Positions 424 to 54,650 of a stretch of 64,000 nt of DNA are shown here, piece after piece. A model generated the notes under the pieces. The model made no database searches. It worked only from the letters and a program-made list of their open reading frames with translations, and was not told where the DNA came from. Every line of letters starts with the position of its first letter. Position 1 is the first letter of the stretch. Position numbers and translations under genes: made by a program. The stretch is from assembly GCF_009734385.1 (NCBI RefSeq), contig NZ_CP046452.1:2170001-2234000 (forward strand). The letters are read 5' to 3'. This DNA is from Corynebacterium kalinowskii (GTDB taxonomy: Bacteria > Actinomycetota > Actinomycetes > Mycobacteriales > Mycobacteriaceae).

Positions 424-526
424 CAGCTATGTGAAACCAGCTATTGGGGGTAGAGGTTCTGCTACTTTGGGCACCGAGACGGAAATAGCATAAGTGAAGC
501 GCCGAATAGCTGGTTCCACATAGCTG
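424..526. repeat. 24-nt inverted repeat pair, about 55-nt spacer
   Basis: Positions 424-447 and 503-526 are reverse complements with two mismatches in 24. The arm core is AGCTATGTG-A/G-AACCAGCTATT. Each arm is itself partly symmetrical (AGCTAT...AGCTAT in repeat orientation). Further AATAGC/AAATAGC words occur between and beside the arms at about 483-488 and 540-546. It could be a cruciform or RNA hairpin in the hemE leader, or the termini of a very small non-autonomous element. Confidence 0.7.
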
Positions 527-9790: not shown

Positions 9791-9856
9791 TGTATGTATC
9801 TCCCATTGTGCTTACGATTGACTATCGTACTTACGCCACGTTCGAAAGGTTCACTG

Positions 9857-10888
9857 ATGGATGGATTCGCGCTCACACCCGAGGAGTTCCTCGCCAGCTG
9901 GAGCGCATCACGTGGCAACCTGCGCCGCTTCCTCGAAGACCGCGCACTACCCCCCGTCAACGAAGCCAGCCAGAAGGTGGCCGGCGAGGCCGCCGTCGCC
10001 TCCGCTGTGCGCTCCGTCTACGACATCGATCTCTCCGATTTCACCGCCGGCGTGGATTCTGTCGGTGGTGCCTTTGAGGCTGCTGGCGGGAGGATCGTGA
10101 CTGTTCCCGACCCGGACATCCCTCAGGACACCGGAGCCGCCGCCTTCTTCGACGTAGACAACACCCTGATCCAAGGCGCTTCCATCATCATGTTCGCCAT
10201 TGGACTGTACCGCCGCAAGTACTTCACCCTGCGCGACATCGCCCCCGTGGCCTGGAAACAAATCAAATTCCGCGTCACGGGATCCGAAAATGCCACCGAT
10301 GTCGCCGAAGGCCGCCAGCAGGCGCTGGAATTTATCAAGGGTCGCACCGTTGCGGAGCTGGTTGAGCTTTGCGAAGACATCGTCGATACCAACATGCTGG
10401 AGAAGATCTGGCCCGGCACCCAGGCCCTGGCTCAGATGCACATTAACGCCGGCCAACAAGTCTGGCTCGTCTCGGCAACGCCAGTGCAGCTGGCCCAGAT
10501 CCTCGCCCAGCGCTTCGGATTTACCGGTGCCTTGGGAACCGTTGCCGAAGTCGTGGACGGCAAGTTCACAGGACGCCTCGTGGGCGACATCCTGCACGGC
10601 CCGGGCAAGAAGCACGCCGTAGCCGCCTTGGCTTCAGTGGAGGGGCTCGATTTGGCCCGCTGCACGGCTTACTCCGACTCCATTAATGACGTTCCCATGC
10701 TCTCCATGGTCGGCACCGCTGTCGCCATCAATCCAGACAGAGACCTGTTGCGGGTAGCTCGGTTACAGAGCTGGGAAATCCGCGACTACCGTTCAGTCCG
10801 TAAAGCCGTACGCACCTTTGGCCTGCCAGCGCTAGCAACTGCTGCCTTCGGACTATTCCGCTGGTGGAAGGGTAAGCAGGCAGTCTAG
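9857..10888 (+). CDS. HAD-IB family phosphatase (SerB-like)
   Basis: A 343-residue haloacid-dehalogenase family hydrolase. Motif I is [10 protein letters not shown] (nucleophile Asp99 and Asp101), motif II is LVSATP, motif III is the Lys in GPGKKHAV, and motif IV is [11 protein letters not shown]. This order and the helical cap between motifs I and II (about 115-200) are those of subclass IB phosphoserine-phosphatase-like enzymes. The substrate cannot be read from sequence. The C-terminal tail is basic and weakly hydrophobic. ATG 9857 was chosen because GAAAGG lies 7 nt upstream; an upstream in-frame ATG at 9794 lacks a ribosome site. Confidence 0.88.
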
Positions 10889-10895
10889 TTAAGCT

Positions 10896-11122
10896 GTGGG
10901 TAAACCTGGTGGGCTTGGAGAGGTTTACCCACCGATCCGGTGACTCACGCGTCCAAACGATGGGTAAACCTAGTGGCCCCGGACAGGTTTACCCATCATC
11001 CCAATGGCCCAAGCAGCCTCCGTGTGTAAACCTCGGACCTCAGCACACGTTTACCCACCGATCCGACGGCGGGAACCCTCAAATGATGGGTAAACCTCGT
11101 TACTCCAGTCAGGTTTACCCAT
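10896..11122. repeat. Array of four palindromes (12-13-12), ~63-bp period, two 126-bp units
   Basis: Four palindromes each have 12-nt arms (consensus RTGGGTAAACCT and its complement) around a 13-nt variable centre: 10896-10932, 10960-10996, 11022-11058 and 11086-11122. Three have perfect arms; the third has two mismatches. Starts are 64, 62 and 64 bp apart. Palindromes 1 and 3 end in CAC/GTG and are followed by CGATCCG; 2 and 4 end in CAT/ATG. The array is therefore two 126-bp tandem units of two palindromes. The 13-nt centres and most of the 25-27-nt spacers differ. It lies 7 bp after the HAD gene stop and before the terminator of the convergent bS22 gene. Confidence 0.93.
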
Positions 11123-11146: not shown

Positions 11147-11181
11147 CGCCCCAGCACCTCCATTACGGAGATCCTGGGGCG
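11147..11181 (-). terminator. Intrinsic terminator of the bS22 gene
   Basis: On the minus strand an 8-bp stem CGCCCCAG/CTGGGGCG with an inner CTCC/GGAG stem is followed by TTTGGCTTTTGG. It begins 17 bp after the bS22 stop codon. Confidence 0.75.
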
Positions 11182-11197: not shown

Positions 11198-11299
11198 TTA
11201 CTTGCCGAGTTTACGACGCTGAACGCGGGTACGGCGCAGCATCTTGCGGTGCTTCTTCTTGGACATGCGCTTGCGGCGCTTCTTGATAACGGAACCCAT
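11198..11299 (-). CDS. 30S ribosomal protein bS22 (AURKAIP1/COX24-like, 33 aa)
   Basis: A 33-residue, extremely basic protein beginning [19 protein letters not shown] and ending QRRKLGK. It matches the small actinobacterial ribosomal protein bS22 seen in mycobacterial 30S subunits near the decoding region. ATG 11299 has a GAGGT ribosome site 8 nt upstream. An open frame continues further 5' but the conserved protein begins here. The neighbouring order (bS22, BldC-like regulator, proC, ppx) is also that of mycobacteria. Confidence 0.93.
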
Positions 11300-38019: not shown

Positions 38020-38063
38020 AAAAAAGACGTCGAAAAGCGTGCAATTTCGCTTTTCGACGTCTT
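38020..38063 (-). terminator. Strong intrinsic terminator of the 36-residue peptide gene
   Basis: A perfect 16-bp stem (38024-38039 with 38048-38063) with an 8-nt loop is followed on the minus strand by TTTTTTG. It lies 13 bp downstream of the small ORF's stop, about 45 bp upstream of the lpd start on the same strand, insulating lpd. Confidence 0.92.
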
Positions 38064-54564: not shown

Positions 54565-54578
54565 AGCGGCAATAGCCA

Positions 54579-54626
54579 CAAGGACTTTTAAGGACTTGAA
54601 GTTCTCACAGTCTTTAAAAGTCCTTG
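54579..54626. terminator. Bidirectional terminator between secreted-protein gene and topA
   Basis: A perfect 13-bp stem (54579-54591 with 54614-54626) with a 22-nt loop is flanked by CCACA/TGTGG that may extend it. It lies between the convergent stops, 14 bp after the + strand gene. Confidence 0.8.
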
Positions 54627-54650
54627 TTCATTTGTGGCCATTATGATCGG

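What the first reader, a model, noticed from the sequence alone, without database searches (positions are those of the whole stretch)
10896..11122. Four-palindrome array with ~63-bp periodicity and a nested 126-bp tandem structure
Each unit has 12-nt arms (RTGGGTAAACCT and complement) and exactly 13 nt between them. Starts are 64, 62 and 64 bp apart and palindromes 1 to 3 and 2 to 4 are both exactly 126 bp apart, so the array grew by duplicating a two-palindrome unit. The period is close to six turns of B-DNA, which would put all units on one face of the helix. Arms are conserved while 13-nt centres and most spacer sequence vary, so selection appears to act on the arms, either as protein half-sites or as RNA stems. 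It is not a terminator (no T-tracts; bS22 has its own terminator beyond it). It resembles a REP/BIME-type element or a binding array for a dimeric protein. I cannot name a known factor with this site.
Basis: seen in the sequence. Interest (0 to 1): 0.8.

Follow-up and report, generated by a model that had tools for sequence, protein, structure and literature searches.

The report
Palindromic repeats tied to a nuclease
The four palindromes belong to a family of paired DNA sites scattered through this one bacterial genome, and they are most likely the recognition sites of a small DNA-cutting enzyme whose gene sits beside one of the clusters, so they look like a type of bacterial repeat element not described before.

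Summary
The array is real. TGGGTAAACCT-N13-AGGTTTACCCA occurs 28 times in this genome (once with N14), in 14 pairs at 11 intergenic loci, always 2 or 4 per locus; 13 of 14 pairs are exactly 64 bp apart. The other 241 congeners searched have none, bar one 3-mismatch singleton. Arms changed at 16 of 616 positions, never with a compensating partner; centres are barely more alike than shuffles. So arm sequence and spacing are constrained, not pairing. The 99-bp pair is directional.

One of the three four-palindrome arrays lies 27 bp beyond a 295-residue gene whose predicted fold ends in a Vsr/I-Bth0305I-like nuclease domain. Relatives of this gene are often flanked by palindromes of their own: 9 of 35 loci share an exact 13-mer between 5' and 3' flanks, against 1 of 28 control loci and 0.55% of mismatched flanks. 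In the nearest relative one such palindrome occurs 41 times, twice flanking the gene.

Best reading: REPIN-like elements recognised by this nuclease, not by a RAYT (no Y1 transposase found). Recognition and mobility are inferred, not assayed.

The parts
10897..10931 (.). palindrome 1 (11-nt arms, 13-nt centre), left palindrome of pair 1
   Evidence: 0 mismatches to TGGGTAAACCT-N13-AGGTTTACCCA
10961..10995 (.). palindrome 2, right palindrome of pair 1
   Evidence: 0 mismatches
11023..11057 (.). palindrome 3, left palindrome of pair 2, one uncompensated change in each arm
   Evidence: 2 mismatches
11087..11121 (.). palindrome 4, right palindrome of pair 2
   Evidence: 0 mismatches
10897..10995 (+). 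pair unit 1 (99 bp: 11-13-11-29-11-13-11), + orientation
   Evidence: orientation set by the asymmetric spacer of 13 pair units
11023..11121 (+). pair unit 2 (99 bp), + orientation, 126 bp after unit 1
10933..10941 (+). conserved inner block (consensus CAATCCGAC; here CGATCCGGT) of pair 1
   Evidence: block identity between loci 0.686 against 0.285 shuffled
10953..10958 (+). second conserved inner block (consensus CCAAAT; here CCAAAC) of pair 1
   Evidence: 0.680 against 0.333 shuffled
11059..11067 (+). conserved inner block (here CGATCCGAC) of pair 2
11079..11084 (+). second conserved inner block (here TCAAAT) of pair 2
9794..10888 (+). ORF of a HAD-like gene, stop codon 8 bp before the array (host neighbour, not part of the element; the true start may lie further in)
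11198..11299 (-). 33-aa bS22-like gene, convergent neighbour
11147..11181 (-). stem-loop that may be the terminator of the bS22 gene, outside the array
   Evidence: (CGCCCCAG..CTGGGGCG); the scan did not list it, so the terminator role is my reading

Best explanation
The array is two copies of a 99-bp, directional, species-specific repeat unit. Each unit holds two palindromic protein-binding sites (four 11-bp half-sites) in fixed geometry. The most likely binder is the nuclease encoded at genome position 636507-637394, outside the window and 27 bp upstream of another four-palindrome array. Its C-terminal part resembles the EDxHD nucleases Vsr and I-Bth0305I; its N-terminal part resembles the AbiEi antitoxin, tied with MenT1-type nucleotidyltransferases. 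Proposed mechanism: two nuclease chains bind the two inverted half-sites of a palindrome, and the 13-bp centre is free in sequence but fixed in length because it spans the dimer and is where cutting would occur. Two palindromes 64 bp (about six turns) apart form one synaptic unit. Gene-less pairs spread from or with the nuclease gene by cutting and repair, and persist in intergenic 'safe' sites, as REPINs do with RAYT transposases. SHOWN: anatomy, copy number, species restriction, sequence rather than pairing constraint, gene-palindrome linkage in several nuclease loci, predicted fold. INFERRED: that this nuclease binds these arms, cuts in the centre, and drives spread.
Confidence: 0.55

Rival explanations
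1. Operator-like or architectural sites of an unrelated, host-serving DNA-binding protein (a chromosome-organising or transcription-roadblock factor). A dimer binds each palindrome and two dimers bridge at 64 bp; the nuclease gene next to one array is a coincidence.
For: Constraint on arm sequence and spacing with free centres is what any dimeric binder would give. The arrays are intergenic by my ORF reading, and several lie beyond stem-loops that I read as terminators.
Against: Absent from the other 241 congeners bar one chance-like match, so a conserved host function is unlikely. Arrays are lineage insertions: 18 of 22 readable relatives have a HAD-bS22 gap of 65-166 bp against 316 here, and G243 lacks a palindrome array at the 468k and 1623k loci. 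Nuclease genes elsewhere are flanked by palindromes of their own.
Confidence: 0.23
2. Plain non-autonomous transposable elements (MITE-like) of an unidentified transposase or insertion sequence, with the palindromes as its ends.
For: Dispersed, directional, 99 bp, intergenic, species-specific, sometimes tandem. No sequence relative in plasmids; in phages only seven weak matches of 33 nt.
Against: Only one exact half-site lies outside the arrays, so no other element with these exact ends was seen. No Y1 transposase found (other transposase families were not searched). Recent copies would share centres; they hardly do. Spacing is kept although centres are nearly saturated.
Confidence: 0.14
3. 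RNA elements: 3'-end hairpins for mRNA stability or termination.
For: Both strands fold better than all shuffles (z -5.9 and -6.5), though the folded stretch includes the bS22 stem-loop. Several arrays follow gene ends.
Against: 0 of 16 changes compensated, though changes are few and 10 of the 16 leave a G-U pair on one strand by my reading; inner blocks pair less than all 500 shuffles; several arrays lie beyond stem-loops that I read as terminators.
Confidence: 0.05

Closest known systems
REPINs with RAYT (TnpA-REP) transposases
   Same: Inverted doublets of short palindromes at a fixed spacing (71 bp for one REPIN group, PMC3116915 passages), conserved ends and variable spacer, intergenic, repeat sequences near the cognate gene.
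   Different: No Y1/HUH enzyme found, no GTAG foot, arm changes uncompensated whereas compensatory changes are common in REPINs (PMC3116915 passage), and the linked enzyme has an EDxHD-type nuclease fold.
EDxHD (Vsr-like) homing endonucleases, I-Bth0305I
   Different: Not seen inside an intron or intein; linked to many dispersed palindromes rather than one target; different N-terminal part.
AbiEi-family antitoxins (AbiEi, Rv2827c)
   Different: Fused to a nuclease; neighbours are not an AbiEii toxin gene; sites lie 3' of the gene and at 10 other loci, not in its promoter.
DUF559 / REase_MTES_1575 proteins (Pfam PF04480, PF18741)
   Same: Homologues L157, L160 and L161 pass the DUF559 cut-off.
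   Different: The listings show no paper on flanking repeats of this family; two papers with a DUF559 mention (PMC8861277, PMC9927313) were not opened.

Membership tests
REPIN/RAYT | Y1 (HUH) REP-associated transposase in the genome | tested here: not met
   PF01797 gives 0 matches at E 0.001 in the own genome; control rings in 5 of 14 genomes
REPIN/RAYT | conserved tetranucleotide (mostly GTAG) at the foot of the palindrome | tested here: not met
   no GTAG at positions -4 to -1 of the 12 regular pairs; definition from PMC8266576 passages
REPIN/RAYT | inverted palindromic doublets at fixed spacing | tested here: met
   14 pairs, 13 at 64 bp, one at 63
REPIN/RAYT | repeat sequence flanks the cognate gene | tested here: inconclusive
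   A array on the 3' side only; both sides for three G243 nucleases; 23 of 35 loci without a shared 12-mer
EDxHD/Vsr-like nuclease | fold of the catalytic domain | tested here: met
EDxHD/Vsr-like nuclease | conserved catalytic E, D, H, D | tested here: met
   E194, D228, H245, D254 invariant in 23 of 23; assignment to the motif is my inference
EDxHD/Vsr-like nuclease | DNA cleavage at the site | not testable with these tools
   no assay possible
homing endonuclease | gene inserted in its own target (intron, intein or allele) | tested here: inconclusive
   gene lies between a nadD-like gene (my reading) and rsfS (Pfam) beside an array; no empty-site comparison was made at this locus
AbiE type IV toxin-antitoxin | two-gene operon with AbiEii nucleotidyltransferase toxin | tested here: not met
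   neighbours: nadD-like (my reading) and RsfS (Pfam); a toxin elsewhere is not excluded
AbiE type IV toxin-antitoxin | N-terminal winged helix plus AbiEi C-terminal domain | tested here: inconclusive
   residues 39-186 match AbiEi 57-195, tied with MenT1; at most part of a winged helix precedes; PADLOC AbiEi weak in homologue L157 (E 8.7e-4), none in the own protein
intrinsic terminator | G+C stem followed by a T run | tested here: not met
   nothing called within the array (scan limited to loops of 3-8); no T run beside the palindromes
insertion sequence / MITE | target-site duplication | not tested
   flanks too diverged from G243 to define junctions by eye

The most novel reading that the evidence does not exclude
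Corynebacteria carry an independent counterpart of the RAYT-REPIN system in which a fusion of an AbiEi-like domain and an EDxHD nuclease recognises a palindrome private to each nuclease lineage, cuts within its fixed-length free centre, and thereby spreads paired palindromes, and in some species its own gene with a 3' array, through intergenic DNA: a gene-drive-like element whose recognition sequence is re-invented with each nuclease lineage.
Probability: 0.35. Interest if true: 0.92.

Novelty: new variant of a known kind. Interest (0 to 1): 0.8.

Why it matters
If right, an enzyme family filed largely as 'domain of unknown function' gains a substrate and a biology, REP-like repeats are shown to arise with a second, unrelated kind of enzyme, and each nuclease comes with its own predicted recognition site, readable from the genome. 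That makes specificity and site-enzyme co-evolution testable across many natural enzyme-site pairs, and could supply new dimeric site-specific nucleases.

Tried and rejected
RNA-structure reading: rejected on pair counts. Rfam: one chance-like miRNA match, E 0.13. RAYT: rejected. Phage and plasmid origin: plasmids no match; phages seven matches of 33 nt, E 0.06, minor tail and hypothetical genes, treated as chance; viral contigs 0. Genome collection of 84,980 species: 2 stretches with other centre lengths, treated as chance; records of the own genome may be left out there. Origin- or terminus-linked distribution: loci lie on both chromosome arms with an 814-kb gap; not tested formally and not claimed. 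Stray half-site at 792471: no partner palindrome seen. NCBIfam and PADLOC: no match for the own protein. Papers holding the arm letters: 66, of which the 20 listed looked unrelated. The listings show no title or abstract about DUF559 or EDxHD nucleases with flanking palindromes; I read only passages of PMC3116915, PMC8266576, PMC7319586 and PMC3943268, and most subscription papers are not held, so this absence is weak. Counts that I dropped: one search used 39 loci, four of them duplicates; one search repeats it with 35. In one search the string matches below 45% identity include runs of N and are not used. The script found no element because its pattern was wrong; one search replaced it.

Full report
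WHAT IS IN THE WINDOW. All have a 13-nt centre; three are perfect over 11 nt and the third has one change per arm. They lie between a convergent HAD-like gene, whose stop is 8 bp before, and a bS22-like gene with a stem-loop of its own that the scan did not list as a terminator. That scan called nothing inside the array; it allows loops of 3-8 only, and by eye no T run adjoins the palindromes.

GENOME-WIDE FAMILY. The window's genome is one contig of 2,510,218 bases. TGGGTAAACCT-N13-AGGTTTACCCA at up to 3 mismatches occurs 27 times, 0 for the reversed control; one more has a 14-nt centre. The 28 palindromes form 14 pairs at 11 loci, with 2 (8 loci) or 4 (3 loci) palindromes each. 13 of 14 pairs start exactly 64 bp apart and one 63. 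Searched without any gap rule, 43 of 44 exact half-sites lie in these arrays; the other is at 792471, and one or so is about what I would expect by chance (my estimate). More diverged copies would have been missed. All 11 loci are intergenic by my ORF reading, a mix of convergent, co-directional and divergent gene pairs.

ONE SPECIES ONLY. Of 242 genomes of the genus, own included, the palindrome occurs in the own genome and, once with 3 mismatches, in G278. A wider scan of named genomes gave two unrelated stretches (records of the own genome may be left out there). The nearest relative found, G243 (HAD region 78% identical), has none. At the HAD-bS22 gap I could read 22 of 29 fetched relatives: 18 have 65-166 bp, 4 have 217-607 bp, against 316 bp here. 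At the 468k and 1623k loci G243 shows no array. So the arrays are lineage-specific insertions.

WHAT IS CONSTRAINED. Arms changed at 16 of 616 positions; none of the changes is compensated in the opposite arm; positions 4-8 (GTAAA) never changed. Centres of different loci are 0.280 identical against 0.267 for shuffles (P 0.03). Alignment of 12 regular pairs shows two inner blocks in the 29-nt spacer that looked like an inverted repeat, but they pair in 58.3% of cells, less than all 500 shuffles (mean 68.0%): the unit is directional. I oriented 13 units on the spacer alone (the pair at 637536 with spacing 63 left out, one base of the N14 centre dropped). The blocks then read CAATCCGAC and CCAAAT, and one centre position is G in 12 of 13. 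After orientation the left centre is 0.325 identical against 0.285 (P 0.002; without that G column P 0.20), the right centre 0.289 against 0.266 (P 0.035) and the mid spacer 0.306 against 0.276 (P 0.03): a small excess, so centres are nearly but not wholly saturated. Nearly saturated centres with almost no length change mean that geometry is selected. This fits protein half-sites better than RNA stems, although both strands can fold (stretches that include the bS22 stem-loop).

GENE-PALINDROME LINKAGE. I read the flanks of other homologues. In G243 three nuclease genes each have a palindrome of their own on both sides. Another example is TGCCTTTGAGGTTG-N21-CAACCTC(A/G)AAGGCA on both sides in G045. 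Of 35 loci, 12 share an exact 12-mer and 9 an exact 13-mer or longer between the 300-bp flanks; HAD control loci 4 and 1 of 28; cross-genome flank pairs 2.6% and 0.55% of 1094 (Fisher for 13-mers P 0.017, for 12-mers P 0.06). The 35 are not independent: 9 come from G213 and 4 from G299. G213, G299, G114 and G229 carry ATCTGCCTG-type half-sites 3' of the gene and share that motif across species. In G213 nine fetched copies of a block with gene plus array are dispersed and 84-89% identical; I saw no other convincing gene in the block of the copy that I listed, but did not test its other ORFs. Not every nuclease shows this: 23 of 35 loci have no shared 12-mer.

A PARALLEL FAMILY. G243 palindrome Z (arms 15, centre 18, up to 3 mismatches) occurs 41 times in G243 and 0 times in the own genome. 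Two of the copies flank nuclease 1899165-1899953. Z arms changed at 50 of 1230 positions (a count bounded by the 3-mismatch search), 0 compensated; its centre is partly conserved. G243 also has family X, two inverted 24-nt modules 66 bp (18) or 65 bp (4) apart in the 22 elements that I collected, seen in no other congener beyond three single chance-like matches. X and another family, Y, have no nuclease assigned. Of 8 A loci that I could place in G243, 5 carry another of these families at the same gap (X at 2, Y at 2, Z at 2, W at 1); one of the 5 is how X and Y were found, so that count is biased. W was recognised by eye.

MECHANISM AND CONFIDENCE. I infer that two nuclease chains bind inverted half-sites and act across a free centre of fixed length, and that pairs 64 bp apart are one unit. 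AbiEi-family proteins bind inverted repeats: in Rv2827c two pairs with 13 bp inside each pair, in AbiEi itself 3 bp (PMC7319586, passages). I-Bth0305I is said to dimerise on nearly 60 bp (PMC3943268, passages). The evolutionary pattern, conserved doublets and variable spacers with a cognate gene, is that of REPINs (PMC3116915, passages), but no RAYT was found, the GTAG foot is absent, and the arms show no compensation. Hence: works like REPIN-RAYT, is not a member. The weakest link is that for palindrome A itself the nuclease is tied by a single adjacency on one side. Overall 0.55 for the main statement.

Noticed in passing
window 424-526: Another palindromic stretch, 44-nt arms 75% complementary around 15 nt, with CAGCTATGTG at both outer ends; could be a further repeat family.
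   Followed up: partly
window 54578-54627 and 38024-38063: Two strong inverted repeats (19-nt arms 95%, 12-nt centre; 16-nt arms 100%, 8-nt centre).
   Followed up: no
L157 (own C1:135300-139200) and L022:5519-5582: A second own nuclease homologue has a palindrome GGATTTGGTAATG..CCAAATCC 5' of it, shared with its G243 counterpart (L159, 58% identical), and a further copy of the motif lies in an unrelated own locus.
   Followed up: partly
L158 (own C1:2256300-2260200): The third own nuclease homologue is flanked by TTCGTCCGGG / CCCGGACGAA, twice 5' and once 3'.
   Followed up: partly
L104 (G243:C1:1600000-1619900): G243 has about 3.8 kb between ldh and gyrA where the own genome has an array and about 0.65 kb.
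   Followed up: no
L060-L089 (G243): Families X and Y: dispersed inverted-module elements without an assigned enzyme; X of near-fixed length.
   Followed up: partly
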